Shown: piece after piece, positions 23,701 to 44,388 of the stretch | Position numbering within the stretch: position 1 is the stretch's first letter | How the letters are laid out: each line of letters starts with the position of its first letter | From: Camarhynchus parvulus | Lineage: Eukaryota; Chordata; Aves; Passeriformes; Thraupidae | Reading direction: 5' to 3' | DNA: 64,000 bases | Assembly: GCF_901933205.1 (NCBI RefSeq) | Contig: NC_044574.1 | Coordinates: 2,420,501 to 2,484,500, forward strand | Program-made: the position numbers and the translations under genes | Notes under the pieces: generated by a model | What the model was told of the DNA's origin: nothing | Database searches by the model: none | Seen by the model: only the letters and a program-made list of their open reading frames with translations

Positions 23701-26700
23701 CGGCGCAGCGCGGCAGCCGCGAGCTGGGCCTGGCCGCCTCCGACATGGAGTACATCCAGACCGACGCTGCCATCGACGTAAGGGACACGGGGACATCGTG
23801 GGGACGTGGGAGGGGCTCACATGGAGCATGGGGGGTCTGGCTGGTCACCCATGGATCGGCCTCAGGATGGGGCTTTCGTGGTCTGCTCACACTCTCTCTC
23901 TCTCCTCTGCTGCAGTTTGGGAACTCTGGGGGCCCCCTCGTCAACCTGGTGAGTGCTGCTGCTTGTCCCCTTGCTGGCTGGGGTGGGGATGTGCTGTGTG
24001 CCCCTCTCTCTGTGCCTCTCTGTGGGTGCTGGGAGGCTTCCTGGAGGGAGGAGGGAGAGCATGAGAACCTTGTGCAGTCTCTGAGGCAATTGGAGCTGAT
24101 GGGGCTTTGGTGGAGACCTGGCTGGTGCTGGCAGGGCAGAGCCAGGGACTGCATGGACTCATCCTGTAGACTCAGCCCCTGGGTCCTGCCCAGCCTTGGA
24201 CAAGGGTGGGCACAGAGGCAGGACCCCCGGTTGGTGCAGTAGTTCCCCTGCTCTCCACAGTGATCCAGGCTGGGTCACTGCTGGGATCCCTGGGATCCCA
24301 ATGCCCTTTCCCTGCAGGATGGCGAGGTGATTGGTGTGAACACCATGAAGGTGACATCGGGCATCTCCTTTGCCATCCCCTCAGACCGGCTGCGGAAGTT
24401 CCTGCAGAAGGAAGAGCAGCGCAAGAGTGAGTGGGGACCTCCCTGCTCGGGCTCTGGGGGAGGAGGGTGAGGGAGGGAAACTTTGGGCTCTGCATCCTTC
24501 TTCCTGAGAAATTCAGGAGAGCAGGAGAAGTTTTTGGGGTCTCATCTGGTGTCACAGGAAAGCTGTGCTGCTGCTGCCTTGCCTGGTTCTTCTGTGACAC
24601 TGGGGAGGGACATTCTCTGTCAAAAATCTGATAAACCACAGTGCAAAATGCAACACCTGGAATGCTCCTGCTGGTGCTGGGAGCTGGACTGAGCTGTTGC
24701 AGGGATTTGGAATAGCTCTGCATGTTGCCTGCCCTTAGGGCTCAGCCCAGCACTGCTGTGAGCAGATCTCTGTTTTCCAGCCATGCCATTCCATGTCCTT
24801 TTCCTCCACAGGCTCTTGGTTTGGCAATGCAGAGTCCAAGCGCCGGTACATCGGGGTGATGATGCTGACCCTCACTCCCAGGTACCTGTCCTGAGCTCAG
24901 GGGCCAGCAGGCCAGTCCTGTTGGGGCAGGGATGGGATGGGATCTTCCCAACTAACTGAGGATGCCTGGTTTTGGGAGGATTGTCTCCACAGCTTAAGCT
25001 TTCACTCTCAAATCTCTTTGTACTTGTGTTGTGGTTACAATGCTGGCTGGCTCATGGGTAAATTGGAAACTTGCAAGTTTGTACACTGGTAGCAGACTCT
25101 GAGCAGATAAAAAGTGCTCTCCCCTTCCACAGGAGGGTGGAACCAGGTGGGGGTCAGGCTGTGCTGCAAGGGAACAAAGGACAGGACTAGAGGAAACTGC
25201 CTCAGGCTGTGCCAGGGGAGGTTGAGGTTGGATATTGGGAAAATTCCTCCTTGAAAGGGCTGTCCAGCACTGGCATATGTGCTGAGAGCAATGGTGGTAT
25301 CTCCATACCTGGGGGTATTTAACAACTGTGTGGATGTGGCACTTGGGGACATGGCCAGTGCTGGCCTTGGCAGAGCTGGGGGAATGGTTAGGCTTGATCT
25401 TAAAAGTCTTTTCCAACCCAAACAATTCAGTGAAGTGCCCATGCCAGCAAGCAAGACTGTGCTCTCACCTCTGGGAGAAGGACAACACCTGCTCTGGTTC
25501 TTTGGCTCTTGCAGCCGCATTTAAGGGACCTTCAGCTGCCTCGTGGGGCTGGTGCTGTGCAATGCTGGGCAAACAAACACCTTTGAGGGCTGTGCTCTGC
25601 CCTCCCAAAGCTCTGGTGAGTTCCCCGTTGCCCAGCAGATGGTGCTGGTAGCCGGCAGAACCCGAGGGATGTGGGAGGCCAGCCCAGCCTCCTCCTGCTT
25701 CCCTGGCCACGCTTGCAGGACCGGCTCTGTCAGGAAGCAGCGTGAAATTCCTCGGACACAGCTCTGGGCATGCAGCTCCAGCTTCCACAGAGCCCCTGAG
25801 CCGATCCAGGGAAAGCACCTGACTGCCAGCCTTGTTTGTGCCCAGCAGGAAGGGCTCTCAACAAGGGACTGCTGGCCTTGGAATCGTGTGACTGCCCTGA
25901 ACCTTTCCATCTGGAAACCTTTCCCTGGCACAGGAAGGAGAAGCTGTGTTGGGCACAGGCTCAGGCTCAAACCCTGTTTTTCTGTTTGTGGTGCCCAGGC
26001 CAGATAAGAGGCAGTGGGCACAGAGATGTGTGAGAGTCCCCAAGAAATCTCTTTTTTTGCTGTGAGGAGGGTGCTCAGAGCCTGGCAGGATCCTTGGAGA
26101 TCCTCAAATCCCAGCTGGACACAATCCAGAGCAGCCTGCCCTGACTGAGCCTGCTGGGGTTGGGTGAGATGAACTTGAGAGGCCTCTTCCCACCTTTGCT
26201 TTGTGAAATTGGGAAGGGATGGCAGCTTGCCCTGGGCTGTGGGACAGCACAGTTGAGTTCAGCACAGAGCACAGCCACGTAGGGAGCCCTGACTGGCTGA
26301 GCAGGGACCTGAGAGGAGCAGAGCTGGGCAGAGACTGAGTGTGTGGGTCTGCAGGGATTGGAGCTGATACAGTGTTTGAGGGAAGAATGCTGTCGCTGGA
26401 GACATCCAGCTGGAGTGTTGCATCCACTTCTGGATTTCATTCAAGACGGGTGAGGAGCAGTTGGGGAGAGTCCAAAGAGGAGCTGTGAGAGGTTAAGAGT
26501 CTAAATTTGGTTTAGAAATCCTAAAATCTGTGGGAAAGTGTGAGAAACTGTGATTGTTTAGTCTCTAGACTCAGAAGGAGGGCTCTGCTGACATGTCTGG
26601 CAGGAAGAGGGGCACAGCTTGTGTTGTGTATCCTGCCCAGCTAGGGCAGAGAAGTGAAACTGCAGCAGAGGAGGGGCGGGTCTGACCCCGGGGAGGGGAT

Positions 26701-27463
26701 GTGACATGGGGATGTGCATCACCACAGCTCTGATCCAGCTGGCAGCTGCTCCGGGGGTTTCCAGCTCTCCCTGGTGCCATTTGGATTCTCATCCTCTCGT
26801 TTTGACAGGAGGATGGTGATGTTTGGGGCTGGCAGCTGTGCCTTGTGCTCAGCAGGATGCAGGGACACAGGAGGGGAGGTTCTGTGCCTGTCTCTAACCC
26901 TGTGCAGCTGCAGGGAGTGCGGTGGGAGCCCTGCTCTGCCTCCAGCTCCATCCCTGATGCTGCTCTTCTCTCTGCAGCATCCTGACAGAGCTGAAGCTGC
27001 GTGACCCCACCTTCCCTGACATCTCCTACGGCGTGCTGATCCACAAGGTGATCATCGGCTCCCCGGCACACCAGTAAGTGCTGCCCTGTGCCTTAGGGCT
27101 GCCTGGGGGAGCAGCTGTGGCATGGGTTTTGCTCCAGAGCAGCAGGGCTTGGGCTCTACAGCTGAGAGGGGGACCTATCCCCAGGCTGGCTGTCTTGATG
27201 TAGAACCTCTGGTGCCACAGCTCCTGCCGCACTTGGAGGACGATGACGCCGAGTGTGTGCCTCACCCTGTGTGTGCTTTATCGTGTTGTCCCCTCAGGGC
27301 AGGGCTGAAGGCTGGGGACGTGGTGCTGGAGATCAATGGGACAGTGTCACGGCGTGCTGAGGATGTGTACGAGGCGGTGAGGACGCAGCAGACCCTGGCC
27401 CTGCTGGTGCGGCGTGGCTATGACACCCTGCTGGTGAGCGTCGTCCCCGAGGTCACCGAGTAG
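20760..27463 (+). CDS. HTRA2: HTRA2/Omi mitochondrial serine protease (frame break in exon 1)
   Basis: Eight exons: 20760-21131, 22075-22279, 23583-23777, 23916-23948, 24318-24426, 24812-24881, 26978-27073, 27298-27463, about 414 residues, ending PEVTE. HTRA2 is an intermembrane-space quality-control protease that can be released to bind IAPs. Exon 1 holds a membrane segment ([11 protein letters not shown]), an AVPA IAP-binding motif at 21013-21024 where processing would expose Ala, and [20 protein letters not shown]. Catalytic His is in TNAHVV, Asp in VADIATIK, Ser in GNSGGPL. The C-terminal PDZ domain runs from YIGVMMLTL to the end. Oddity: the ATG at 20760 is in a different frame from the membrane segment and protease; the switch falls at 20839-20915, in C runs and a (TCC)n tract, and the downstream frame has a stop at 20836-20838 and no ATG. 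One surplus base, real or a sequencing error, would explain it. Exons 2-8 are intact. Confidence 0.95.
20868..20897. repeat. (TCC)n trinucleotide tract in HTRA2 exon 1
   Basis: About nine CTC/TCC units followed by a 7-C run, coding for poly-Leu or poly-Ser depending on frame. It lies where the frame break must be. Confidence 0.9.
22364..22960 (-). mobile_element. LTR family 2 (reverse copy)
   Basis: Begins TGTCAG and ends CCGACA on the plus strand, so on the minus strand it runs TGTCGG to CTGACA like the copies at 37374 and 38386. It contains the family's GGGGTGAAAAATAGAC and TGGATTGGTTTAGAG blocks in reverse. The flanks do not show a clean target duplication. In the HTRA2 intron between exons 2 and 3. 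Confidence 0.8.
22961..23550 (-). mobile_element. LTR family 3 (reverse copy)
   Basis: Reverse complement of 36755-37367: both hold a C-rich block, CAGGTGTCCTTTGTCCCTTGAGA-like wording, a GTTAAAAGA/GTAAAAGA promoter-like stretch and an AGTAAAGCTCT/AATAAAGCTCT poly(A)-like stretch. It abuts the family 2 LTR directly. Confidence 0.75.
25160..25435 (+). mobile_element. CR1 LINE 3' end
   Basis: Shares GGGAAAATTCCTCCTTGAAA and GGCACTTGGGGACATGGCCA with the copy at 15905 and ends TCTTTTCCAACCCAAACAAT. In the HTRA2 intron between exons 6 and 7. Confidence 0.8.
26045..26500 (+). mobile_element. CR1 LINE fragments
   Basis: Two CR1-like stretches: 26045-26200 (CCCAGCTGGACACAATCCAG, CCTGCCCTGACTGAGC) and 26330-26500 (TCCACTTCTGGATTTCATTC). 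Degenerate, no ORF. Confidence 0.6.
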
Positions 27464-27620: not shown

Positions 27621-28072
27621 GCACTTTTCTGGCGGCCCCCAGGGCCATGTCATCTCCTTCCCTGGTGGAGGCTGGGCCGTGTGGGACCTTGCTTCTCCTG
27701 GCAGTCCCTACGAGGCAGCTGGGAAGGAGCTTGCTGTGCCTGCAGGGACCTTATCAGTGTTCATGGTGTTCTGCCACCTGCTTGGAACCCACCTGGGCTG
27801 GGATCTGACTCCTCTGTGTACCTGGCAGGCAGCTGGATTGTGTGGCCCCTGTGTGGGTGAGAGCAGCCCTGGAGCAGGTCTGGGACTGGCATTACTTCCC
27901 TGGAGTGCAGCAGTGCTGGTGTGCTACAACCATCTGGTCACATCCCTTCTGCTGGGAGCTCTGTGTCTGCTCCAAGCTCTGTGTCCACATCCCCTCCCAT
28001 GCAGCAGCTTTCCGGGCCATGGTAAATTGGTGTCAGTGCTGGACTCATGATGGCTGAGGTGCCATCTCCTGG
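27621..28072. other. Unassigned intergenic sequence
   Basis: Between the HTRA2 poly(A) signal and the minisatellite. I see no gene, repeat family or conserved frame. Confidence 0.5.
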
Positions 28073-28660
28073 CCCTGATGTCCATCCAGGAGGGCTGAGG
28101 AGGGCCCTGATGTCCACGAGGGCTGAGGACGGCCCTGATGCCCAGGAGGATTGAGGATGGCCCTGATGTCCAGGAAGGCTGAAGATGGCTCTGATGTCCA
28201 GAACGTCTGAGGAGGGCCCTGATGTCCAGGAGGATTGAGGACAGCCCTGATGTCCATCCAGGAGGGCTGAGGACGGCCCTGATGTCCATCCAGGAGGGTT
28301 GAGGAGGGCTCTGATGTCCATCCAAGAGGGCTGAGGAGGGCCCTGATGTCCATCCAGGAGGGCTGAGGAGGGCCCTGATGTCCATCCAGGAGGGCTGAGG
28401 AGGGCCCTGATGTCCATCCAGGAGGGCTGAGGACGGCTATGATGTCCATCCAGGAGGGCTGAGGAGGGCTCTGATGTCCATCCAGGAGGGCTGAGGAGGG
28501 CCCTGATGTCCATCCAGGAGGGCTCAGGACGGCCCTGATGTCCAGGAGGATTGAGGATGGCCCTGATGCCCAGGAAGGCTGAGGATGGCTCTGATGTCCA
28601 GAAGGTCTGAGGACGGCCCTGATGTCCATCCAGGAGGGCTGAGGACGGCCCTGATGTCCC
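28073..28660. repeat. Minisatellite, ~27-33 bp unit, about 19 copies
   Basis: Units of GGCCCTGATGTCCATCCAGG plus AGGGCTGAGGA. Long units carry the CATCCAGG insert and short ones lack it, giving a higher-order mixture. Both strands have long artefactual reading frames. It lies between HTRA2 and LOXL3. Confidence 0.95.
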
Positions 28661-29340
28661 TGAGGGCTGCGTTTGGGAGCCACAGCCGGGGCCGGGGCTC
28701 TGCCTGTCCCGCCCCCAGCTCGCTGTCGGTGCTGGAGCTCTGCTCCCACACACACCCAGCCCCGGGGGACAGCTGGCGGCCATCGGGGAAGGAGCAGCCC
28801 CGGCTGTTCCTCGCCTTCCTGGAAGAGCAGCGGCGAGGGCAGCCCGGAGCAGCGGAGGAATGCGGCTGCGGGGCCAGGCCCTGCCCGTGACGGCGCTCCC
28901 GAGCCCCGGCCCGCTGGTTTTGGGACATGAAAGAAGCACAGTTCCTCGGGGGTGCTGCGGCAAGGGGCGGCTCTGCCCTGAGAACAGCGCTCCTTTCAGC
29001 AGCCCCGGCCCCGCCGGAGGAATTCGCTGCCCCGGCCAGCGCCGCCGGCCCGGGGGAAATGGCGGCGTGTCTGGCATAGCTGCTCGGCTGCGCTGACCGC
29101 AGCGTTCCGGGGCCGAGCCAAGGCCTGCCCCTCCTCCTCCTCCCCGCTGAGGGCACTGGGGAAGGGCTGGTGGGGTCAGAGCAGCCAGCTGAGGGGTGAG
29201 AGCTGGGCTGGAGCTCCCTGGGCCCTCGTGTCACATCCCAGTGTTCCTGACCAGTGTCCCCAAAGGCCCGGCCGGCCTGTGCTCCCACACGAGTCGAGGC
29301 AGCCCTGCTCTGCTGTGAGACCTCAGTTCTTGTGGGTCAT
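28661..29340. other. GC-rich intergenic stretch without a recognisable gene
   Basis: Moderately CpG-rich between about 28.68 and 29.16 kb. Reading frames exist but none has splice-supported or family-like sequence. It could be a small CpG island or regulatory element. Confidence 0.4.
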
Positions 29341-30328: not shown

Positions 30329-33300
30329 CTATGAAATCTGGTTGTTGAGCTGACCTGGGTACTGCTCAAACCGCTTGTTGGCCTCCTCGCTGAGCGCATC
30401 TCCTGTGGGCAGAGGGTGTCAGCTCTGGTGCAGTGCATCCCCTGCCAGCACCTTCCACTGTAGGTGCCCCCAGCAGCACCATCCTCATCCTCATGGCTTC
30501 CTGCAGCCCTGTCTCTGCCCTCCACCCTCACCCCCGTGCCGTGCCCCGGGCCATTACCGATGTGGCAGCTGTGCACCCAGATGCGGTGCCCGTCGTACTT
30601 GCAGTTGCATTTCATGGCATTGTTGGTGAAATCACTTTCTGCCACCTCGAAGTTGGGGTTGATCACGACCTGTGGAGCACTGACAGTGAGAGCCCTACCC
30701 CAGCCCCACAGGATGTGTCTCCCCAGCTGTGGTGGGTGTGCTGGAGAGCTCCAAGGAGCCAGTGGCTGCTGATGTGGTGGGGTGGTCCTGCCCCTGTGCA
30801 CCATGAGCAGCGCTGCTCAGAGCTGGAAAACCCATGTGGCAGCATGTCTGAGTCTGCGGGCACGACAGGCAGTGTCCTGTGCCAGCACACCCACTGAGCT
30901 CCAGTGGGAGAGAGGGATGGGTGGCTGAAGTGTGTGGAGGGCTGAGGTGCAGGGACAGAGGCTGGGAGGGTGGCACGGGAGGGTCAGGTGCAGCACCTGC
31001 AGGATGTAGTTGCCTGGCTTGACATCAGTGATGTCAATCCACTGGCAGTCGATGTCGTGCCGGTACAGATCCCAGCAGCCCACGGTGATGCCCTGCTCCC
31101 CAAAGTTGGCACACTCGTACCTCTTGGCCACATCTGCAGGCAGGAGGAGACACAGCTGGTGCCTGCTGAGACCCCCAGCCTGGCTCCACCATGGGACACA
31201 GGCAGGGACAGTGCTGCAGGGTCCCACGTCACCCACCTTCCTCGCACTCGGTGTCCTCCAGGCAGAAGCTGGCCTTGTGTCCCTCGGCCACCTTGGTGCC
31301 GTTGGGGGTCAGGATGTCGTAGTGGGTGAAGATGTCCATGCTGTGGTAGTGCCTGTGGGAGAGAGCCAGTGCCTGCTGCAGACTGCCCTGCCCTGCATCA
31401 GCCCCCTGCTGCCCGGAATGTCCCCACAGCCCCTGCTCCGAGGTGGCAGCACTGTGAGGTTGGGCAAAGCTCTGTCCTGCCCTAGAAGGGGACACAGCTG
31501 TCCCCAGCCAGTTGGCCCACGCCAGCAGAGGGCTCAGCTGCAGGGCACAGCCTGCAGTCCTGTCCCTGCCCTCCAGAGACCCCATTTCCAACACTGCTCA
31601 TCCATGAACAGCCCCTAAACCAAACCAGACAAAACTGGACGCTGAGCACCAGATTTGGGCTATGCAGTGTCACCCTCACCCGGTGCGGAGGGATAGAATG
31701 TAAGAGAATAGTGCAGAAGGTAATCTCACACCTGAGGAATTGCAGCTGTACTAATCACCAAAGATTAGGAACAGGCCTGCCCTGAATAAACCACAGCTGT
31801 GTCCAATAAGAAGACGAGTGCTACAAAAGAGTGGGTTAGCTGGGTGAGGGGAGAGATGGAGTTTGGTGTGCTGTGAGGAGAAATGGAGTTTGTTGGTTGT
31901 GCTGTGAAGAGAGTTGGAGTTTGTTGGTTGTGCTGTGAGGAAGAAGGCGTCAGTGCTGCGAGGAGCTGCCTGTGAGAAATCACCGAGAAGGTATGGGACT
32001 TTTGAAATAAGATGACAACAACCCGGTGTCGCCCTCATCCAGCATCACCCTCTCTCAGTGTCATACTTGCACAGTGTCACTCTCCTTCAGCGTCACTGCT
32101 GCCCAGCACCCTCCTCACCCCGTCCATTGCAGCAGCACCACCCTCTCCCCTCCCTGGCTCCCAGCCCCATCTGTCCCCTCCCTGCCGTGCCCCACACGCA
32201 CCGGTGGCACTCGTGCCAGACCCAGGAGTGGCGGCCAGCCTTGGGACGGAAGTCGGCGCGGCCACGGTTGTGGATCTGCGAGGAGAAGCGGAGCAGGCGG
32301 CGGTGGCCGTAGGGCCAGTTGGCCAGGCGGGCAGAGCTGGCCAGGCAGTTCTCCTCAGCAGCACAGTACAGCATGTGCAGGGGCCTGTCCTCGATGTACG
32401 CCGTCTCCTGCACCAGCGGCGCATGCAGCAGCAGGTCCGAGGCGGCTGGGGACAGGCGGCTGCTCAGGGACGGGCCCTGCTCTCGGCAGGGATGGGGCAG
32501 TGCCCAGGGCTGGCAGGGCTGAACTAGCCAGGGGGGATATGTGCCCTCTGCATTGGCTGGGTGTTGGCTGACACCTGACCTCCAGCTGCAAACCCCACTG
32601 AGCACAGCTCCTGGCACCACAACACTGGTGTCTACAGAGCCCACCACCCACAGACCCCAGTGCTCAGAGTCCATGCCTGCAGATCCCACTGCCCACAGAT
32701 CCCAGTGTTCAGAGTCCATACCCACAGACCCCACTGCCTGCAGACCCCACCACCCGCAGACCCCAGTGCTCAGAGTCCACACCTGCAGACCCCACCGCCT
32801 GCAGGCCCCACTGCCTGCAGACCCCGGTGCTCAGACCCCACCGCCTGCAGACCCCAGTGCTCAGAATTCATACCTGCAGACACCACTGCCCATAGAGCCC
32901 ACAGCCCCTCTCTGCAGAACCCCCACCACACACAAGCCCCCCGTTGCCCCCTGTGCCGCTCACTCTCGGAGCAGATGACGCCCGCAGCGAAGCGCGTGCC
33001 CGTGTTCCTGCAGCTCAGGCTGGCGCCGTGGTGCTGGCAGTGGCTCAGGGACATCTCGTGGCCGGCGCACTTCACCCCGCTCATGACCATCTCTGTCACG
33101 TTGCTGGCGTCCCAGTACCACGTCTCCTGGCAAGGGGGTGAGGCAGGGTGGGTGGCAGGGCTGGTGGCTGGATTGCCCAGGATCACTTATACCCAGGCTG
33201 CAGCCGAGCCCCCCACCACAGCTGCCCACAGGGGTGTGCGTCCCTCTGTCCCCATCTGTCCCCATGCAGCCCCACGGTCATTTGGGAAGTGCTGGCCGGT

Positions 33301-36300
33301 GCCTGTGCTCCCCAGGGCGTCACCAGGGCCCTCCTTGCTGACACCTACCGTCACAGCATGCAGGGAGTAGCCCAGGCCGAGCTGACGACAGGCCACCATG
33401 GCCTCCTTGGTGGTCCAGCCATCGCTGCAGACCGTGCCCCACTTACTGCCTCGCTTCACCTCCACGCGGCCCTCAAACTCTGTCCTCCCGCCGGCCAGGC
33501 GGATCTGCGGGGAAACCCTGGGGCCGTGAGCGGGCACCCCACGCTGTGCCACCTCCTGTCCCACTCCAGCCCCGTCCACCCCTGTCCCCAGCCCCGTGAG
33601 CTGTGGTGGTGGCTGCTGCTGCCCTGGCCAAGCTGGTGCTGGCACCTACTTGTAAGCCGTGGTTAGCGAATCCCAGCCCCAGCTGGCGACAGGCCACCAT
33701 CGCCTCGAGGGTGCCCCAGCCTTCGCCGCACACCAGACCCCAGCGGGGCTGGTCCCCGTCGCCAGCCCCCACCGCCACCTCGACCCGCCCCTCGAAGCGG
33801 CTCCGGCCCCCGCTCAGCCGAATCTGCAGAGAAAGGCGGTGGCAGCATCATCACCGTCACAGGCGATGCTCCCCCTGCACGCAGGGCTGTCCCCAGCCCC
33901 TGTCCCGGGCCGTGCTGCAGTGCCTGCACACGGGGATGAGGGAGCCAGGAACTGAGCAGAGCCAAGCACAGCTTTAGTTGGCAGGGAACTTGCTAAAACT
34001 GGTGGATTTGGGGACAACAAATCGCTTGTGAGTTTGGGAATTGTCTCACCAGCTCAGGGAAAACAGTTCATTTTGAAATGGCATCATTTCAGAAATGACA
34101 GGTGTGAGAGAGTTAAAGATCATTTAAAAAAACTCAAAGTGGATGAAACGATGGGCCAGGGCAAGCAGGAACAAGTGGCTCAATTTGCTTGTTTCATCAC
34201 AGGTTAAAAAAAAATCTCTCTTGGTTATCCCACAGTGATTTTTTTTCTGGTGTTTCTGCTGGGGAGTGGGCACAGGCTGGCAGCAGGAAAAGCAGCAGGG
34301 AGCAGCACCCACAGAGCACCCAGAGCCCCCACAGCCTCCCCTCCACCCTCTTCCTCACAGGGATTCCCACCCACAAAACCCCCAATCTCCCAGGACAGGG
34401 GGAAATGTGTGGGGTGCAGAGCAGGAGAGATGAGGTTCCCACGGGTTCTGTGGGCCTTTCCCAGCCCCTCACTCCGAAGCCCCACTGCTGGGAGCCCCCT
34501 GGAGCCAGCAGATCCCCGTGGTGCGCACCAGGTTCTCGTAGCCCATGTAGGGGATGTTGCAGCGAACAGCAGCGTCCTCCGTGTGCTTGCAGTCCTCCTG
34601 GGTGATGTTCCTGAAGGGACAGTTCCACAGGGACTTCTCGGTGCCCCGGCACTGCACCTCGTTCAGGTGGATGGGGCCCGTCCCTGCAGGAGAACAGCAG
34701 AAATCAGGGCCCTGTGACACAGGCATGCTCAGGGCTGTTGGCATATTTCTCTTCCCAGGGATTTCTGAGATTCACATTCTCTGAACCTCAGAGAAAGGGA
34801 AAACACAATTCTTAGCACTTGCTGTGACCGCGTTGTGCCAAAGTAGAATGCAATATGGAGATTGTTTATCCAAACTGATGGGGTTTTGTTTCCTTGGCCT
34901 ATCAGGACCTAATTGACCTCTCCTGATACAAAATACTAGGCCCAGAAGGACTAGCCAACCTGCAACTAATAGCAACCAAAGCTGCCACCACCCTCCACTC
35001 CAGCCTAATCAAAGCTTACTTAGGATCATTCGCTTTATCCATCCTCATCATCCTCTCTGAACCTCAGAGAAAAGGAAAACACAATTCTTATTTGCTGTGA
35101 CTGTGTTGTGCCAAAGTAGAATGCAATATGGAGATTGTTTATCCAAAGTGATGGGGTTTTGTTTCCTTGGCCTATCAGGGCCAGGTGTGTGTATGTGTGT
35201 TGGGACTGTTGGGTGACAGACATGAGATTCAGTGTAGTGTGTGCAGAGCGCGCGCTTGGCAGGTTCAGTTTAGATGAAATGTATATAATATAGTATAATA
35301 AAGTAATTCATTAGCCTTCTGATATCCCTGGAGTCAGATGCCTCATTCTCTAGCCTGCCTTTGATTTGCAATACAGGGCCACCCATGTCCCCAACTCTTC
35401 CCTCTGTTTTTGGCAGGTCTGAGGGAGTTGGACACTCCAGCCTCCACAGCTGCTGCCTGGGGCAGTGTGGTTGAGTGGCTGTGGTCCCACTGGGATGCTC
35501 CATACGTATCCCAGTGCTCACAGGACACCCCAGCCAAGCAAAGCCTGGGTAAGTGCCTCATCCTCAGCTCCAGGACGGGATGCTTGGTGCTGTAGCAGCC
35601 ACAGGGCCTGCAAGGCCTCCCTGGTGGTCAGTTGCCTAAGATAAGAAATGCCTAGTCGTGATGACTGGACCAAAAGAAGCCCCTCTTCCACCTTCAGACT
35701 CTGTATGACAATAGGTCACTGTTGCCTCAACCCTTACTATGGGACTGTTTCCCAAAACCCCTCTACCCTATATAAACCCCTATTTCTGTGCTGTTCAGCG
35801 GAAGAGCTGTCACTGTCACCCTTTGCAGAAGCTGCTAATAAAGACACCTCTGTGGAACTGTGTCACATTCACATTCTCTGAAAAATCCATTCACCTAGGG
35901 TTTTTCTCCTGGGAAGCTGAGAAGCCTCAGAGAACAAAGGTAAAACAATTCTTATCTCATTTGCTTCTCCTATGTTGTGCTCACAGGTGGAATGTGGTTA
36001 GAGATTGTTTACCAGAGGTGATTGTTTCATTGGTTTTCTGGTGTGTTTTGACTTATTGGCCAATCAGTGCCAAGCTGTGTTGGGACTCTGGAAAGAGTCA
36101 TGAGTTTTCATTATTATCTTTTTAGCCTTCTGTAAGTATCCTTTCTGTATTCTTGAGTATAGTTTAGTATAGTATTCTTTCATATAGTATTTTAAAATAG
36201 TAAATTAGCCTTCTGAGAACATGGAGTCAGATTCATAATTCCTCCCTGTTACCTTGATTTTTTAAGATTTTCTACACCTTCTGATGTTTACATTCTTGTA

Positions 36301-39300
36301 ACTAACTTTCTTACACACTTTCTGTAAATAACTTATTGTTTTGCATTCCTTTATAGAAGAAAAGAAATTTAATAAACTGGTAGTTTGTCCAGTGCCATTG
36401 GAGAGGTGGGACTTTCACCCTCCAATCCACTGTCACTTTCAGAAATCTATAAATATTAGAGTCAGAAAATAAACTTCCCTTTTTTTACCTTAAAAACAAC
36501 AGTGTGTGCACGTTGTGTTATTTCACGTTCTACAGTGACACCTCCCTGCCACGAGGGTTCCAGCAAATACTACAGAACCTCATACAACTCTTCTCCCAAG
36601 TCTGCCAAGGCACTTAGCAAGCAAAGAGCTGAAATTACCGAGAGCTGAATTCAAAGAGCTGATCTCACTTAAGAGTTGATCTGCTTGCTAAGATTGCCTG
36701 GAGCTGGGAGCTTGCCTGAGGGACACGGACAAGTGGAGTGTTGTGGTGTGATGTCATGGTTTGCCTCAGATACCCTGGGTTTCTCCCTGAAGATTTCTTC
36801 CCCAGGTGTGTCAGTCTCCTCTCCCTCCCCCTCCCTTGCCCCCTGCCCAGCACTGTCTGTCAATCCTGGCATTCCAGAAGGGCTTCGAGTGATTGGCAGA
36901 ATTCAAAAGATGCCTCCACCCCTGGAGGACATTGGGCCATCCAGGTGTCCTTTGTCCCTTAAGACTCCCCTCGTACCTGGTTGGTGGCTCCCTACCCCTT
37001 CCCTCCCCCTCTCCCCGGGGTTAAAAGGAACAGGAACCACACAGTCAGGGAGTTCTGTTGGAACTGTTACTGAATTCAGAGGCCTGAGGGCCACAGTAAA
37101 GCTCTGAATCAAAACCCTCCATCAGAACCGACTCCTTTCCTCCACCATCGCCCTAAAGCTTCTCCACCAGAGGGAAACCTGAGGGGCATCAGAGCTCCTG
37201 CATGCCTGGACTTGTCTCCATGCGCCCAGCTGCAGCATCCAGATAGCCAAATGTGTCTCTGGGGTGAAATCACCACAGTTGCTGCCTTTTGGTCAAGCAG
37301 CAAGGGCCAGACAAGCTCAGGCACGTCCCATCCGGCTCTATTGGTAATTATTCCAATAGTGGAGCTTAGCAAGTGTCAGGACTCAGGACATCCCTCTGGC
37401 TGTCCTGAGCAGCCAAGACTCCTGCCAGGGGTCTCAGGGACCCTGGAACAGAGCCCAAAACACCTGTGGATTTGATTATGACCTGTGGAGCAAATTACCA
37501 ACCTTGTATGAAGATCAGCAAGCCACAACAGTTTAAGTAGAATATTAGTGAAGTTATCACGGGGTGGAAAAGTAGATTTTTGGGGTTTTTGGTATGAGGG
37601 TTCAGGAGGCAAGATGGAGGGAACTGGGTGTGTCAAGCCTTTCTCCTTCTTCTTCTTGGCCGCCATCTCCTGCTGTGATGTTGGCACTTACAGATTGGTT
37701 TAGAGTAGAACCTCACTGTCTAACATAGGTGATGGGTATTGGGAAGTAATTGTAAACATTGTACACGTAGTTTTTAGTATAGAAAGATAACACTGCCCCA
37801 GGGGCAGGCAGAGTGCCTGGAACTGTCTTGCTGAGCTGACCTTGGCAGGGCAAGAGAAAATTTTTTTAAGATAACATAAAATAAACAACCTTGAGACCGA
37901 GAAATGAAGAGCCCTGACTCCTTCTTCAAGCGCCGGGCTGGGAAAAAAAACTTTCTAACTTTTCTCGGGGTCACTCTGACCAGCTAGAGATCCTGATAAG
38001 CAAGACTTTGCTATCCAGACACCTACAGCAGCCAGGGTTGGAGAGACCCCAAGAACCCCCTGCTGTAATAAATCAACCCCTCCGCCCTGCAGCCTCACCT
38101 TGGCCCATGCGTGCCCCGGTGAGAGCCTCCTTGGCGCTGCCGAAGCCCAGCTCGCGGCACACCACGCTGGCCGACTGCAGGTTCCAGCGGTCGTCGCAGA
38201 TGGTGCCCCACTCGCTGCTCCTGAGCACCTCCACGCGGCCCTCGCCCACCCTGGCGCCGCCCTTGAGCCGGATCCGGGGCTGTGGGAGCAGGGACAGGGG
38301 TGGGACAGTGTAGGGTGGCACACACAGCGCTGGGATGTGCAGGAACAGGACATTGTCCCCACCTCCCGCTCCGGAGCCGGTCACCTGTCAGGACCCAGGA
38401 CATCCCTCTGGCTGTCCTGAGCAGCCAAGACCCCTGCCAGGGGGCTCAGAGACTGTGGTTTTGATTATGACCCATGGAGCAAGTTACCAACCTTAGACTA
38501 AGATCTGCAAACCATGACAAATTAAGTACAATAATAGTGAATTTATCACAAGTTGAAAAAGTAGATTTTGGGGTTTTTAGAATGGGGATTCAGGGGGGCA
38601 AGATGGAGGGATCTGGGCGTGTCCAGCCTTTCTCCTTCTTCTTCTTGGCCTCCATCTTCTGCTGTGATGGTGGCACTTTTGGATTGGTTTAGAGTAGAAG
38701 CTCACTTCTAACATAGGTGATAGGTATTGGGAAGTAATTGTAAATATTGTACACATAGTTTTTAGTATCAAGACATAACACTGCCCCGGGGGCAGAATGC
38801 CTTGGACTGTCTTGCTGAGCGGACCTCGGCAGGACAGGAGAAAGAATTTTATAGATAAGAAACAATAAACAACCATGAGACCGAGAAATGAAGAGCCCTT
38901 ACTCCTTCTTCAAGAGCCGGGCTGGGAAAAGAGACTTTCCAACTTTTCTCGGGGTCAGTCTGACCAGCTAGAGATCCTGACAGTCACCCAGCAACTCGCA
39001 CACCTGCAGAGCCCAGGGGACACAGCCTGGCCCAGAGTGTGGCACTGTCCTGCTGTGGGCCACCACAGAACTCACCCCCCTCCCTGCAGGGCTCACCTGG
39101 CCCTGCTGCTGCTGCTGCTGGCGCTGTTTCTTCTTGTGGGCACTGCCAGTGGCGAAGAGGGGCCCTGGCACACAGCTGACCACGGCGGGCATGCCCGAGC
39201 TGCAAGCTGCTGAGGAGTTGCCCCGGTAGAACTCGAAGGAGCACATGGACAGGTGCACCTCTGTCCCCGTGCAGGACACCGAGTGCAGGCGGTAGTTGAG

Positions 39301-42300
39301 CTGCTGCCGCTCTGTGAAGAGCCTGTGAGGGGGAGAGGAGCCCTGAGCCACGGCCAGAGTGACCAGTGGCACTGGAGGTGTCACCAGTCACCCTGCCTGC
39401 AGCTGTATGCGCTGGCTGTGCCCCTTGCCCTGTCCCCAGGGTGACACATGGTGCCTGCCACCCCTTGCCAGGTGCCTGTCCCACACCCCCAGCAGCACAG
39501 GGATGCAGGTGGGGGCACACACAGCTCTGGAGCTCCTGCCTCTGGCTCTCCACAGAGCCATTTACCTCTTCTTGGGCCCTACGTCCTCCCTGCGCTTTTG
39601 TTTAGGCTGAGATTTGGAGGCCAGCCTGGAAAATAGAAAACAACCATCACAAAGCCTGGGGTTTCAGGCTGTCACCTCTGCCCTCAGCAGTGACACAGGG
39701 AGCACAGCCTGCCCTAGCTTCACTGCAGGCTGAACTGGGCACCTTGGCACCCATGTGCATCCCCTTTGTGTCACACAGGGGTGCAACAGCATCATCTGCT
39801 GCCAGCAGTGTGACACAGCCACACTCCACAGCAATGATGCAGTTTCCTGCATGCGTCCCACCAGGAAACTGCTGGATGCAGCCACATCCTGCTCTGCCTT
39901 GTCACAGACCAAAAGATCAAACACCAGCAGCCACCATTTGATCAGTCAGGTGTGGTTGTGTCCGTGTCCTCATCCAGACACCATGCCACCACTGTGCCAT
40001 GTCCCCAAGGTGCAGGACACCCAGCAAGCAGCCCAGGCAGCCCCAGGGTGCTTGCCCTGGGATCATGGGACACGGTGGGACTTGCTGCAGGCTGGCAAGG
40101 ACTGCTGCCAGTGAGGGAAGCAGCCCTGGCACAGGCTGAGCCATGAGGGGAAGCTGCTCAGCACACACAAGGTGGAGGTGCAATCCCAACATCCTCAAAT
40201 GCTTGTTTCCCTCAGGGAGGAAGATGCTGAGCGGAGCCAAAACCCCAGAGCCCACAAGGAGTGGAGAGCAGAGTGGCCCAAAGGAGGGCAGGGGACTGCC
40301 AGCCCCAGGGACCAGGCAGAGCCAAGCCTGGCCACTGTCCCCACAGGTTGGTGTCAGCTGCACAGCCCAGCGAGCCCAGGACACAGCACAGGGCTGGGAT
40401 TCACACAGCCAGAGGGCATCAGTGCCCAATCCCACTCAGGAAACCACATCTGGATCTGGGCTCCCAGGACAAGAAGATGCCATGTGTGTGGTGTGAGCCC
40501 CAGGGAGAGCAGCCAGACAGAGGCCTGGGAGGAGATGGGGGTGTGGGACTGCTCCGGCCAGGGCTGAGCTGGGAGCTCTGAGGATCCTGGCTCTTCCAGC
40601 AGCCAGGGAAGAGCACAAGAGGAAAGAGGCATGACTGACAACAAAAGGTTCAGGCTCAGGGTAAGGAAAACCTCTTGCCCATGAGGGCTGTTCCACACTG
40701 GAGCAGAGACCACAGGGCTGCTGAATTTCCATCCTTGGAAGGTTTCAAAGCCAGCTGGATGAAATCCTGGGTTTAACCTACAGCTGGCTCTGCTCCACAC
40801 AGGGAGTTGGACCAGGACTCCCAGAGGTCCCTTCCAGCCTGGATTAGCCTGTGCTTTCATATGACTGTGGCTGTGCAGCCCCAAATTGATCAGCCCCTAC
40901 AAAACAATGTGGCTCCCTGGAGCCAGTTCCTGCTCAGGGCAGAAGGACAGGACTGCAGCCTCATGGAGACACAAAACATTTCTCCCAGAGCTGCAGGGAA
41001 AGGGGCAGTCAGCACCAAACCAGCCAGGAAAAAACACACTGGAGCAAACAGAACCTTCAGGTGGGAGTTGAGGAAACCCATGGGATGACCCTGTCTGAAC
41101 TCCCACCACCAGCTGCAGGAGCTGGCAAGGATGACTGCTGGGGACACAGACCTGGGAGTGTCACAAGAAAGAGCTCACAGTGGGTGTAGGGCACATTCAG
41201 CACCAGGGAAGGCGGTGGGACTGGGGCTCAAGAAAGAGATGCCTCTCTGCCCCAGCCCAGAGAGGATGGGCTCTGGCTCACTGTATCCACCAACAGATCC
41301 AGCAGCAGGGTTCAGGGATGGAGGGAAAAGGCAGCCAGACCATCCCCTGGGCCTGGCAGAAAGGCAGCAAGAATGAGCAGGCAGAGGATGAGTAGCAGAC
41401 CCCAAGCGGATGTGGCACTCAGGGCAGGACCTGCCACACTGTGCCCATCAGCACTGCTGAGCACAGGCTCTGGTGCCCACACCAGCCCATCCTGCAGGGA
41501 ATGGAGGGGTGCACAGCCTTTCCAGCATCCCCAGCGCTGCTTTCTGCAGAAAGCAGCCCATTTCCACAGCCCTTCCTCCCCATCCACCAGTAGAGACAGC
41601 TCTGCTCCAAGGCCACCTGCTGCCCTCCCAGGGTGCCAGGACTCCTGCCTGGTGAGCAGGACAGGGCTGCTCTGCCTGGAGCATGACCAGCCTGGGAGAG
41701 AGATCGTCTCTTGTGGGGAATGGGGGACCCCAGCACGCCCAGGCAGGTGCCCTGGGGTGGGGTTTGTCCCACTGGGCCAGCACAGCCCAAGCCTTCAGTC
41801 TGCTCTGTCCAGATCTGTTTGTGCCCAGATCCATTCTGACAACAGAGACTGGTGGGGCTGGACAGCCCAGCTCTGCCATGGCTCAGCAGATGGGGCCCTT
41901 GCCCCTTACCTGCTGCCCAGCCTGGGCCCCTTGGTCCTGGCTGCTCGCCTCAGCCTCCTGTGGAGCAACACCAGCTCAGGACACACACAGTGCCAGGCAC
42001 AGCGTGTCCCTGCCCCTTGCTCAACCCAGGGTGTGGCTGGAGCATCCCCTGATGGCTGCAAACCTCCCCTAGGGCTGGGGACAGCACTGCCAGGGAGCAA
42101 AAGCACTCCCCTTTGCTGTAGGGTGTGTGGTGGCCACCCCATGGCCCCCCAGCTTGGTTAGCAAGTGCCCAGATGTCCACCTGGGGCTTGGACTGGTGAG
42201 CAGCAGGGTGGGAGGGATTTTAGGAGCCACAACACCCAACAGCACAGCCTGTGCTGTGCCCCCAGCACCACCCCATGCCCCTGGCACCGTCCCCATCCCT

Positions 42301-44388
42301 GCTTGGACACCCCACCCCTGTGTGCTCCCTGCCGGCCTCACTCACCTGTAGAAGTTCCTGTTGACTTTTTTCTCTGCCGGGAAGCCCATCATGCCGCAGA
42401 CCACGCGGCTGTTGTGGCTGTCCCAGCCCTGGTCGCAGATCTGTGCCCAGCTGTCCTTGTAGCGCACCTCCACGATGCCCTCTGTCACCGGCAGCTGCCG
42501 CCGCCCCCCGGACACCACCGGCCGCAGCCGCACCTCCTCCAGGTGGCTCTGCTCCGTCTGCAGGGATCACGTCAGCCCCAGGTCACCTCCCATCCCATCG
42601 CCCCTCCTCCTGCCAGCCCACTCCCAGGGAATCTCCAAGGATGAAGGAGAGAGGTCCCCAAGCATAGATGGGACACAGGGACAGCCAGTCCTGCATTCCT
42701 GCTGGCCACATCTACTGGCTCTGGGCAGCCAAGGATTGAACCTCACGCAGAGAGGAGCTCAGTGCCTCCTGTCCCCTTGGGTCCCCAGGTGCATCTCTGG
42801 GGAGCACAACCAGGAAAGCCAGCACTGCTTTCCTGCACTCCTAGAGAGAGATCCCACACTGTCCCACACCCAGGGTGCCCTGTGGCATCCCAGGGAGAGT
42901 TCCCACACTGCCCCACATCCCAGGGTGCCCTGTGGCATCCCAGAGAGAGATCCCACACTGCCCCACATCCCAGGGAGAGTTCCCACACTGCCCCAACAGC
43001 CTGTGCATCCCAGGAGAATCCCAGACTGCCCCACATCCCAGGGAGAGTTCCCAGACTGCCCCACACCCCACGGTGCTCTGTGGCATCCTGGATGTCACCA
43101 GCTGCTTTGGCCAGCTCAGCAGCCCCCTCACCTCGATGACATTGGAGTCCTTGAAGCCTGGGATGCGTTCATCCTTGCAGACCACACCTGCATCCTCCTC
43201 GTGGCTGCAGTCGCTGTTCCCCCAGCCCCGGTGTTTGCAGTCCCCGATGCTCTTCTCATTTCCAGCACAGTTCACATTGTCCAGCCAGATCCGCCCTGCC
43301 AGACACAGCCTGGGGGTGAGGGGGAGCCAAGCATCCCCTGGGAGCAGGGAAGGTGCCCTGGAGCATGGCCAGGGATCACACAGGTTACAGCAGGAGCTGT
43401 AGCACAAAGCTGAGGCCAGTGAAATGCCAGGAGTGAAGTTCTGGATGGCATTCACATTCCCTGAACTGATTTCTTCACCCAGGGCTTTTCTCCTGGGAAG
43501 CTGAAAGGCAGCAAGAGAGGCCTCAGAGAAAAGGAAAACAATTCTTATCTCATTTGCTTCTCCTGTGTTGTGCTCATGTGGAATGTGTTTGGAGATTGTT
43601 TACCCACAGGTGATTGTTTCATTGGATTCTGCTGTGAGTTGTTTTCACTCTTTGGCCAATCGGGGCCAAGCTCTGTCAGGACTCTGGAAAGAGTCACAAG
43701 TTTTTCGTTATTATCTCTTTAGTATTCAGTAAGTATCCTTTCTGTATTCTTTAGTATAGTATAGTATAGTATTCTTTAATATAATATAATATAGTATAAT
43801 AAAGTAATAAATTAGCCTTCTGATAAGATGGGAGTCAGATGCATCATCTCTCTCTTTGCCAGGGTTGCCTGAATTTGCCTGAAACAATAGCTCTGGGTGG
43901 AGGTCTGCAGATGTGGAGCCTCCACCTCTCCAAGGGACTGCTCTGCCACACAGAAAGCTCCCACACGTGCCCACCTGAGCACACAATCACTGCCAGGCAC
44001 TCTGCAAACACAGAACCTGCCCTTTGCAGAGATGCCAGGGGTGTGCTGTGCCCACCAGCCCTCTCTTACCGACTCCTTTGCCGTACTTGGCGCTGTGGGC
44101 CCAGCCGGTGGCGGCCACGAAGCCGAGGTGGCGGCACAGCACGTGCGCGTTGCCCAGCGTGAAGTCGTCGTCGCAGATGGTGCCCCACTCGTCGTTGTAG
44201 AAGACCTCCACGCGACCCTCGTTGTGCTTGCGGGGGTACCCGGCCAGGCGGAACCTCAGCTGGGGCCCGGGGGGGTGCGTGGGGCCCGGGGGGGTGGGCT
44301 GGGCACTGCCCACCCACAGCCACGCGCTGCCCAGCGGCACCAGCAGCACCAGCAGCTCCGGCCATGCCCATGTGCCGCAGCCTCCCAT
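30329..44388 (-). CDS. LOXL3: LOXL3 lysyl oxidase-like 3
   Basis: Thirteen core coding exons in transcript order: 44070-44388, 43132-43295, 42346-42557, 39097-39322, 38099-38279, 34529-34683, 33650-33823, 32964-33126, 32202-32445, 31237-31352, 30997-31133, 30558-30669, 30329-30402. The sum is 2277 bp, 758 residues (human about 753), all in phase. LOXL3 is a secreted copper amine oxidase that oxidises lysines in collagen and elastin. A signal peptide ([19 protein letters not shown]) precedes four SRCR domains with [13 protein letters not shown] cores, then the catalytic domain with copper-site [11 protein letters not shown], the LTQ lysine in EGHKASF and its tyrosine in [10 protein letters not shown], ending PGQLNNQIS. 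After domain 2 is a basic [11 protein letters not shown] stretch. Exon 1's acceptor at about 44400 implies an upstream noncoding exon. Exon 6 uses a weaker GTGCGC donor. An extra SRCR4 exon is described separately. Confidence 0.96.
31700..32030. repeat. Interspersed repeat with internal ~32-bp tandem units
   Basis: An A/T- and G-rich insert in the LOXL3 intron between exons 9 and 10, unlike its GC-rich flanks. Positions 31848-31950 hold three units of TGGAGTTTGTTGGTTGTGCTG type. TE origin is likely, family not recognised. Confidence 0.6.
32650..32890. repeat. Degenerate tandem repeat, ~17/34-bp unit
   Basis: Repeated CCCACTGCCTGCAGACCCC and CAGTGCTCAGAGTCCA phrases in the LOXL3 intron between exons 8 and 9. 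Confidence 0.85.
33349..33504 (-). CDS. LOXL3: Alternative SRCR4 first-half exon of LOXL3
   Basis: 156 bp, phase 0 at both ends, with a good acceptor (CCCCGCAG) and donor (GTAGGT). It encodes [16 protein letters not shown] ... [31 protein letters not shown], aligned with the neighbouring core exon 33650-33823 ([16 protein letters not shown] ... [10 protein letters not shown]). Both would splice to the same second half at 33126. Using both would put two first halves in one SRCR domain, so mutually exclusive use is the simplest reading; its use in place of the core exon gives 752 residues. Confidence 0.75.
34768..34906 (+). mobile_element. LTR-like repeat, family 1, truncated copy A
   Basis: Starts at the family's ATTCACATTCTCTGAACC phrase and stops abruptly after TTCCTTGGCCTATCAGG, where the mitochondrial-like insert begins. 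Confidence 0.75.
34907..35054 (+). other. Nuclear mitochondrial insertion (NUMT), ND5 C-terminal region
   Basis: Read with the vertebrate mitochondrial code, the ~148 bp are open. Internal TGA would be Trp and ATA Met, giving [18 protein letters not shown] and [19 protein letters not shown], which resembles the end of avian ND5. The A/C-rich plus strand and TA-poor third positions fit mtDNA. Nuclear pseudogenic copy. Confidence 0.75.
35055..35345 (+). mobile_element. LTR-like repeat, family 1, copy B
   Basis: Restarts at CTCTGAACCTCAGAGAAAAG and runs through GGCCTATCAGGGCCAGGTG and a short AT tract with AATAAAG to GAGTCAGATGCCTCATT. Confidence 0.75.
35640..35872 (+). mobile_element. LTR family 4 (TATA and poly(A) signal visible)
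   Basis: Has CCCTATATAAACCCC (TATA box) and, about 75 bp on, GCTAATAAAGACACC (poly(A) signal), the layout of a retroviral U3-R-U5. No internal viral genes are attached. Confidence 0.65.
35873..36240 (+). mobile_element. LTR-like repeat, family 1 variant
   Basis: Shares ATTCACATTCTCTGAA, CTCCTGGGAAGCTGA, AACTGTGTTGGGACTCTGGA-like wording and AAATTAGCCTTCTGAGAACA with 43449-43860. Confidence 0.7.
36245..36754. other. Probable retroelement-derived sequence of unknown family
   Basis: AT-rich sequence with TTTAATAAACTGG and AGAAAATAAACTTCC poly(A)-like stretches, between two LTR-type repeats. No coding frame of note. Confidence 0.4.
36755..37367 (+). mobile_element. LTR family 3
   Basis: Forward copy of 22961-23550. 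Contains GGGGTTAAAAGGAACAGG (promoter-like) and CCACAGTAAAGCTCTGAATC (poly(A)-like). It ends beside a family 2 LTR. Confidence 0.75.
37374..37998 (+). mobile_element. Solo LTR, family 2 (TSD agcaag)
   Basis: 625 bp from TGTCAGGACTCAGGAC to GAGATCCTGATA. It is flanked by perfect 6-bp duplications AGCAAG at 37368-37373 and 37999-38004. A 6-bp TSD is usual for class II (ERVK-like) elements. Intronic in LOXL3. Confidence 0.9.
38386..38982 (+). mobile_element. Solo LTR, family 2 (TSD gtcacc)
   Basis: 597 bp from TGTCAGGACCCAGG to GAGATCCTGACA, with perfect TGTCAG/CTGACA terminal inverted ends. It is flanked by GTCACC at 38380-38385 and 38983-38988. Intronic in LOXL3, antisense to the gene. Confidence 0.93.
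39323..42345. other. Large LOXL3 intron, mostly unique sequence
   Basis: Apart from one CR1 copy, I see no gene, RNA or tandem array. Reading frames on both strands lack splice or family support. Confidence 0.5.
40590..40860 (+). mobile_element. CR1 LINE 3' region
   Basis: Typical CR1 phrases: GAAGGTTTCAAAGCCAGCTGG, GGGAGTTGGACCAGGACTCC, CAGAGGTCCCTTCCAGCCTG. Confidence 0.8.
42850..43085. repeat. Degenerate tandem repeat (~30/60-bp)
   Basis: TCCCACACTGCCCCACATCC and CAGGGTGCCCTGTGGCATCC alternate about five times in the LOXL3 intron between exons 2 and 3. Confidence 0.9.
43449..43860 (+). mobile_element. LTR-like repeat, family 1 variant
   Basis: Closest to 35873-36240. It has a TAGTATAGTATAGTAT tract, AATAAAGTAATAAATTAGCC and the family end GGGAGTCAGATGCATCAT. 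Confidence 0.75.

What the first reader, a model, noticed from the sequence alone, without database searches (positions are those of the whole stretch)
33349..33823. Duplicated, probably mutually exclusive SRCR4 exons in LOXL3
Two adjacent exons (33650-33823 and 33349-33504) encode alternative versions of the same first half of SRCR domain 4. Both are phase 0-0 and both fit the shared second half at 32964-33126. Their sequences differ in the loop between EGRVEV and the WG core, and at the end (GFANHGLQ against GYSLHAVT). Strong conservation of [12 protein letters not shown] in both argues that both are used. A switchable SRCR4 next to the catalytic domain could change substrate or partner choice.
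Basis: partly seen in the sequence, partly recalled or inferred. Interest (0 to 1): 0.75.

Follow-up and report, generated by a model that had tools for sequence, protein, structure and literature searches.

The report
Ancient alternative exon pair in LOXL3
This songbird gene for a collagen-crosslinking enzyme holds two alternative versions of one exon next to the catalytic part; the pair is at least as old as the split between sharks and bony fishes, and one copy is missing from the placental and marsupial mammal proteins looked at here.

Summary
On the minus strand LOXL3 has two adjacent GT-AG, phase 0-0 exons, A (33823-33650, 58 codons) and B (33504-33349, 52 codons). Both encode the first half of SRCR domain 4 and fit the shared second half (33126-32964); 34 of 52 aligned residues are identical. 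A-only, B-only, A+B and skipped transcripts all keep the frame. The pair is not a bird novelty: A followed by B is encoded in LOXL3 of catshark, sturgeon, bichir, teleosts, frogs, tuatara, turtle and birds, so the duplication predates the shark/bony-fish split. Over 19 proteins B is more conserved than A (mean pairwise identity 0.80 against 0.69). The 55 mammalian proteins examined carry A only, six listed tinamou proteins B only, so either exon alone seems to suffice. Strict mutual exclusivity is not shown: 93 of 187 database models contain both exons, no frame barrier exists, and no RNA reads were available. Best reading: an ancient, selected alternative-exon switch of SRCR4, changing a loop that is glycosylated in LOXL2 and carries a glycosylation motif in many LOXL3 A copies. 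New member of a known kind.

The parts
33650..33823 (-). Exon A: first half of SRCR4, form A (58 codons, phase 0-0); 11-residue loop [11 protein letters not shown] between EV and WG; tail GFANHGLQ
   Evidence: homologous to the segment present in mammalian LOXL3 and in human LOXL2 SRCR4
33349..33504 (-). Exon B: first half of SRCR4, form B (52 codons, phase 0-0); 5-residue loop KRGSK; tail GYSLHAVT
   Evidence: counterparts in catshark, sturgeon, bichir, teleosts, frogs, turtle, birds
32964..33126 (-). Shared exon: second half of SRCR4 (ETWYW...ICSE), phase 0 start, phase 1 end
33505..33649 (-). 145-nt intron between A and B; yUnAy site with its A at -23 and a further AG at -15 before exon B
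34529..34683 (-). Upstream shared exon (second half of SRCR3), donor CTG|gtgcgc
32202..32445 (-). Next downstream exon: start of the catalytic part
30329..44388 (-). LOXL3 coding span from the inferred ATG to TAG; A-form 758 aa, B-form 752 aa, A+B 810 aa, both skipped 700 aa, one stop at the end in each

Best explanation
LOXL3 of jawed vertebrates carries a tandem duplication of the exon for the first half of SRCR domain 4. Splicing joins either A or B to the common second half, giving two complete SRCR4 domains with different loops and a different tail beside the catalytic domain. Shown: both exons are intact here, counterpart pairs exist from catshark to birds, both have been conserved, and A-only, B-only and A+B proteins are in the databases. 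Inferred: the two exons normally substitute for each other, the choice is regulated by tissue or stage, and its effect is on the SRCR4 face next to the enzyme (an A loop of about 9-12 residues, with an N-glycosylation sequon in many species, against a 5-residue B loop without one), so on secretion, processing or partner binding. Double inclusion, which adds a half SRCR domain, may also occur; strict exclusivity is not established. In the placental and marsupial mammal proteins examined here B is not found and only form A remains.
For: Intact GT-AG gene model and frame. A then B in 93 of 187 LOXL3-like hits with the second-half motif (one of them holds the pair twice), including catshark P0147, Polypterus, Acipenser, Amia, teleosts, frogs, Sphenodon, turtle and birds. 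Tree of the halves: A is one side of a branch in 100% of 200 bootstrap trees, and the labels A, B and SRCR3 need the least possible 2 changes. Constraint: mean pairwise identity over 19 proteins B 0.804, A 0.695, second half 0.751. Single-exon lineages: 55 of 55 mammalian proteins A-only, 6 of 6 listed tinamou proteins B-only. Loop: sequon in 64 of 109 non-mammalian A copies; B loop 5 residues in 113 of 116; the six B sequons lie in the core, outside the loop. LOXL2 N455 is glycosylated (PMC10380739, passages), and in the best-fitting LOXL2 models only SRCR4 was rigidly connected to the catalytic domain (PMC6629125, passages).
Against: No RNA reads. Every teleost model counted except two Anguilla rows includes both exons, which may reflect real double-inclusion transcripts; that would make this a pair of cassette exons rather than a switch. 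Several models plainly contain unspliced intron (for example P0011, P0028, P0059, P0079, P0137), so models are weak witnesses. In the tree the B rows are not one clade (two changes, 0% of bootstraps; A lies inside B), though one clade is not rejected (p-AU 0.375). In mammals (0 of 55) and in this bird the A loop has no sequon, so the glycan idea cannot be general. Both structure predictions failed (mean pLDDT 33.9 and 38.6).
Confidence: 0.72

Rival explanations
1. Tandem cassette exons: A and B are usually or often included together, giving a LOXL3 with an extra half SRCR domain; exclusive use is the exception.
For: 93 of 187 LOXL3-like hits hold A and B, including named isoforms (X-numbered) and 'isoform n-Tn' models; A+B keeps the frame at 810 aa; intron A-B is 145 nt with a yUnAy site near its end.
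Against: The lists keep only the best 120 rows each and rank A+B models first because both halves score; the models are predictions, not reads. A+B leaves a half SRCR whose two cysteines would lack their partners (the pairing is recalled; Pfam reports two stretches in A+B, the better one complete, the extent of the other not shown). Mammalian and tinamou proteins do with one exon.
Confidence: 0.22
2. Exon B is little used in birds: kept by past selection, mis-annotated or nearly silent, with A the working exon.
For: Several passerine 'LOXL3 oxidase, partial' models and Gallus isoform X6 are A-only; a further AG lies 13 nt before the B acceptor AG, and B has fewer pyrimidines there (11 of 16 against 13 of 16).
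Against: The window's B matches 48-51 of 52 residues in the three other birds and 38-45 of 52 in the ten ray-finned fishes compared, and B is more conserved than A over the 19 proteins; donor match to consensus equals that of A (7 of 9); the listed tinamou proteins are B-only.
Confidence: 0.08
3. Recent duplication or assembly artefact peculiar to this bird.
For: None found.
Against: The same pair, in the same order, is encoded from catshark to birds; A and B use different codons at 18 of 34 identical residues.
Confidence: 0.01

Closest known systems
Human tandem duplicated exon substitution events (PMC9741552; start of abstract and passages seen)
   Same: Adjacent homologous exons, ancient (most early vertebrate), used as alternatives
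   Different: That catalogue is human-based; its main text contains no 'LOXL', as expected if mammals lack B. Exclusivity rests there on annotated transcripts, not here
OGDH mutually exclusive exons 4a/4b (PMC7969005; start of abstract and passages seen)
   Same: Ancient exon duplication; intron between the pair held to 118-131 nt in birds and mammals, compared with 145 nt here
   Different: In OGDH distant branch points enforce exclusivity; here the yUnAy site nearest exon B is 23 nt from it, and AGs crowd the intron
Human LOXL3 splice forms sv1 and sv2 (PMC6678131; passages seen)
   Same: Alternative splicing changes which SRCR parts LOXL3 carries
   Different: sv1 and sv2 drop whole exons; the passages seen describe no duplicated exon, and exons 2-9 encode four SRCR domains
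LOXL2 SRCR4 (PDB 5ze3)
   Same: Its first half is A-like: long loop, LGFASNAFQ tail; domain next to the catalytic domain
   Different: Human LOXL2 has no B-like segment there; LOXL2 of other species was not examined (0 of the 187 counted proteins has a LOXL2-type catalytic motif). The loop carries N455, changed to Q in a crystallised construct (PMC6629125 passage)

Membership tests
Tandem duplicated (homologous) exon pair | Adjacent exons, homologous in sequence | tested here: met
   34 of 52 residues identical, 71-nt DNA core at 79%
Tandem duplicated (homologous) exon pair | Same phase and plausible splice signals | tested here: met
   Phase 0-0, GT-AG, donors 7 of 9 to consensus each
Tandem duplicated (homologous) exon pair | Conserved in relatives, both copies | tested here: met
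   A then B from catshark to birds; identity 0.695 and 0.804 over 19 proteins
Mutually exclusive exons | Each single choice gives a complete domain | tested here: met
   Pfam SRCR covers profile 2-100 of 100 with either exon
Mutually exclusive exons | One and only one of the pair per transcript | tested here: inconclusive
   Database models: 92 A+B (+1 with the pair twice), 23 B-only, 71 A-only of 187; no RNA reads available
Mutually exclusive exons | A cis barrier to double inclusion (frame, short intron, distant branch point, competing RNA pairing) | tested here: not met
   Frame kept, intron 145 nt, AG at -15; pairing of the two introns flanking A is only a weak lead (3 of 200 block shuffles as low). 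Trans-acting regulation could not be tested
LOXL3 | Four SRCR domains plus lysyl oxidase catalytic domain of LOXL3 type | tested here: met
   Gene model; N-terminal part 98.9% identical over 376 columns to Zonotrichia lysyl oxidase homolog 3 P0005, which carries Pfam PF00530 and PF01186
Putative BMP-1 cleavage site in SRCR4 (human GDD 446-448, PMC6678131 passage) | G-D at that place | tested here: not met
   The window's A reads C-G-E and its B C-S-D; G-D in 55 of 55 mammalian A copies but 10 of 106 non-mammalian A copies; 114 of 115 rows labelled B read S-x (on the labels)

The most novel reading that the evidence does not exclude
LOXL3 of jawed vertebrates is a switchable enzyme: splicing chooses between an SRCR4 with a long, ancestrally glycosylated loop (A) and one with a short bare loop (B) on the domain tied to the catalytic core, and thereby sets secretion, proteolytic processing or matrix target. 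Therian mammals lost the B state and tinamous the A state, so work on mouse and human LOXL3 has missed half of the enzyme's repertoire.
Probability: 0.3. Interest if true: 0.68.

Novelty: new member of a known kind. Interest (0 to 1): 0.5.

Why it matters
In LOXL2, SRCR4 is the one SRCR domain modelled as rigidly joined to the catalytic part (PMC6629125 passages) and is the target of the antibody AB0023 (PMC10380739 passages); the same FASEB paper says that the functions of the SRCR domains remain to be determined. If non-mammalian LOXL3 comes in two SRCR4 forms, results from fish, frog or chick LOXL3 mix two proteins, and comparison with A-only mammals gives a natural test of what SRCR4 does. 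The apparent reciprocal losses (B in the mammals examined, A in tinamous) are a compact natural experiment on exon substitution.

Tried and rejected
Paper searches for a prior description: LOXL3 with 'mutually exclusive exon' (0 papers), LOXL3 with alternative splicing and SRCR (6 listed), lysyl oxidase with mutually exclusive, exon and SRCR (2 listed), loxl3b in zebrafish (11 listed), LOXL3 with chicken and exon (20 of 21 listed), LOXL3 or exon-duplication terms, two at least (20 of 188 listed, LOXL3 count 0 in those 20; lower rows not seen), lysyl oxidase evolution (2 listed), 'mutually exclusive exons' with SRCR (1 unrelated). No listed title or abstract start describes this pair. Only open-licence PMC text was searchable; of the listed papers I opened seven (PMC6678131, PMC4448552, PMC9741552, PMC7969005, PMC10380739, PMC6629125 for passages, PMC9013439 for its outline).

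Dating relative to the LOXL2/3/4 split: in a 57-column tree the human LOXL2 and LOXL4 halves fall with A (support 96/86), but a tree with A+B together without them is not rejected (p-AU 0.289). Undecided. The B rows are not one clade in either tree; one clade is not rejected (p-AU 0.375). The SRCR3 outgroup branch is very long, so the root is not trusted.

Structure prediction of an A+B and an A-only protein gave mean pLDDT 33.9 and 38.6: unusable, so no fold search was made.

Similarity of the first 20 nt of the introns after A and B: 12 of 20; 6 of the 78 donor pairs of the gene reach 12 or more, so no signal. Intron-intron RNA pairing: the introns flanking A pair better than all 200 whole shuffles, but 3 of 200 block shuffles are as low; one species, so a lead, not evidence. 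The introns flanking B show nothing (137 of 200 shuffles as low), nor do the two outer introns (173 of 200).

A first regular-expression count mislabelled some rows and was replaced by profile scoring; the residue counts still rest on the labels. 33 of the 220 database proteins lacked the ETWYW-like motif and were dropped before the count; they include generic SRCR proteins and some LOXL3 models (for example P0136, P0138, P0142, P0143, P0148). Each database row stands for a cluster at 90% identity, so forms hidden inside clusters were not seen. Three B rows parsed with an 11-residue loop and one A row with 6 were not looked into.

Full report
What is there. The minus strand of the window holds an intact LOXL3 gene, inferred ATG at 44388 and TAG ending at 30329, in 14 coding exons (A and B included) with GT-AG introns. 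Its N-terminal part is 98.9% identical over 376 columns to lysyl oxidase homolog 3 of Zonotrichia albicollis (P0005), so the window is most likely from a songbird. Between the SRCR3 second-half exon (34683-34529) and the SRCR4 second-half exon (33126-32964) lie two exons, A (33823-33650) and B (33504-33349). Each starts and ends in phase 0 and each encodes the first half of SRCR4. All four combinations are open: A 758 aa, B 752 aa, A+B 810 aa, neither 700 aa (stop not counted).

Is it more than chance? A and B share 34 of 52 aligned residues and a 71-nt DNA core at 79%. The identical residues use different codons in 18 of 34 cases. With either exon the domain matches Pfam SRCR from profile position 2 to 100 of 100, 71.3 bits for A and 82.8 for B. 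The differences are a 6-residue shorter loop in B, the WG core ([13 protein letters not shown] against [13 protein letters not shown]) and the tail (GFANHGLQ against GYSLHAVT).

How old? Three protein searches (the best 120 of 851, 532 and 1206 hits listed) gave 220 distinct proteins, of which 187 carry the ETWYW-like start of the second half. Scored with profiles of A and of B, 92 hold A then B, one holds the pair twice (an Acipenser sinensis model marked UNVERIFIED_CONTAM), 23 hold B only and 71 A only; no row holds the pair in the order B, A. The A-B holders include the catshark Scyliorhinus canicula (P0147), sturgeon, bichir, Amia, many teleosts (named 3A and 3B), frogs, Sphenodon, gecko, turtle and birds. 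In a tree of the halves the A copies lie on one side of a branch in 100% of 200 bootstrap trees, and the labels A, B and SRCR3 need only the least possible two changes: copies sort by exon, not by species. Against a simple picture, the B copies are not one clade; A lies inside them in both trees, a B clade being neither shown nor rejected (p-AU 0.375), on 57 columns with a very long outgroup branch. One duplication before the cartilaginous/bony fish split is the simplest reading. Whether it also predates the LOXL2/3/4 split is open (p-AU 0.289). PMC4448552 (passages) places the origin of LOXL2, LOXL3 and LOXL4 after the lamprey branch.

Is B used? Conservation says that it matters: over 19 proteins from ray-finned fish to birds mean pairwise identity is 0.804 for B, 0.695 for A and 0.751 for the second half. 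Named isoforms with B alone, A alone or both exist in the listings.

Do the exons replace each other? Two lineages point that way. All 55 mammalian proteins counted, placental and two marsupial rows of Sarcophilus among them, are A-only, although the ranking would be expected to put an A-B mammal above them; each row stands for a 90% cluster, so hidden forms are possible, and no monotreme appeared. PMC6678131 (passages) gives human LOXL3 exons 2-9 for four SRCR domains. Conversely the six listed tinamou proteins (P0028, P0029, P0036, P0040, P0047, P0049; five species) are B-only, and the Nothoprocta perdicaria model P0028 seems to read through the SRCR3-B intron as 54 residues with no A in it (that this is one uninterrupted intron is inference). 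So each exon alone seems able to serve.

Is the choice exclusive? Not shown. Half of the 187 models hold both exons, and among teleosts all counted rows but two Anguilla do; the ranking favours such rows because both halves score, and some models plainly contain unspliced intron (for example P0011, P0028, P0059, P0079, P0137). Double inclusion keeps the frame. The A-B intron is 145 nt with a yUnAy site 23 nt before its end and AGs throughout, unlike the distant-branch-point arrangement of OGDH (PMC7969005, passages). A+B would carry an extra half SRCR with two cysteines whose partners lie in a second half that it lacks (the pairing is recalled), so if it is made it is an odd protein. RNA reads are needed.

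What would the switch do? The A loop between EV and WG is 9-12 residues in 108 of 109 non-mammalian copies and 9 in all 55 mammalian ones; the B loop is 5 residues in 113 of 116. An N-X-S/T sequon sits in the A half of 64 of 109 non-mammalian copies, in the loop, including catshark, bichir, Amia, tuatara, gecko and many teleosts; it is absent in mammals (0 of 55) and in the bird of this window. Six of 116 B copies have a sequon, in the core and not in the loop. LOXL2 has N-G-S at this place (recalled; the 5ze3 chain reads QGS), and N455 is reported glycosylated, glycosylation improving stability and secretion (PMC10380739, passages). In the best-fitting LOXL2 models only SRCR4 was rigidly joined to the catalytic domain (PMC6629125, passages). 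The putative human BMP-1 site GDD 446-448 (PMC6678131, passage) lies in the A segment; the window's A reads GEG there and its B reads SDG, and 83 of 106 non-mammalian A copies have GE, so it cannot be the ancient purpose; BMP-1 did not process LOXL2 in vitro either (PMC6629125, passage). My inference is that the A/B choice reshapes the SRCR4 face beside the enzyme.

Verdict. It belongs to the known kind 'ancient tandem duplicated exon pair', is apparently undescribed for LOXL3 in the open-licence papers that my searches listed, and was easy to miss because the mammalian proteins examined have only one copy.

Noticed in passing
window ~23570-27460, + strand: Open frames of a gene converging on LOXL3 read like the mitochondrial serine protease HTRA2 (name recalled, not searched); one pigeon model (P0010) joins trypsin and PDZ domains with LOXL3, probably an annotation fusion of the two neighbours.
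   Followed up: no
P0028, P0029, P0036, P0040, P0047, P0049 (tinamous): The six listed tinamou LOXL3 proteins lack exon A; P0028 suggests that the SRCR3-B intron is only about 162 nt there.
   Followed up: partly
window 33263-33268: One UGCAUG (an RBFOX-type motif, recalled) on the transcript in the intron just after exon B; by my estimate about a 1 in 20 chance in 222 nt.
   Followed up: no
window 33505-33649 and 33824-34528: The introns flanking exon A pair as RNA better than expected (0 of 200 shuffles; 3 of 200 block shuffles as low), which could loop out A; one species only.
   Followed up: partly
window 27924-29230: Long stop-free minus-strand stretches made of a repeated PSWMDIRALLSPPGWTSG-like unit, a minisatellite beyond the 3' end of LOXL3.
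   Followed up: no
window ~32600-32900: Repeated ggggtctgcaggc(a/g)gtgg-like units in the intron after the SRCR4 second half.
   Followed up: no
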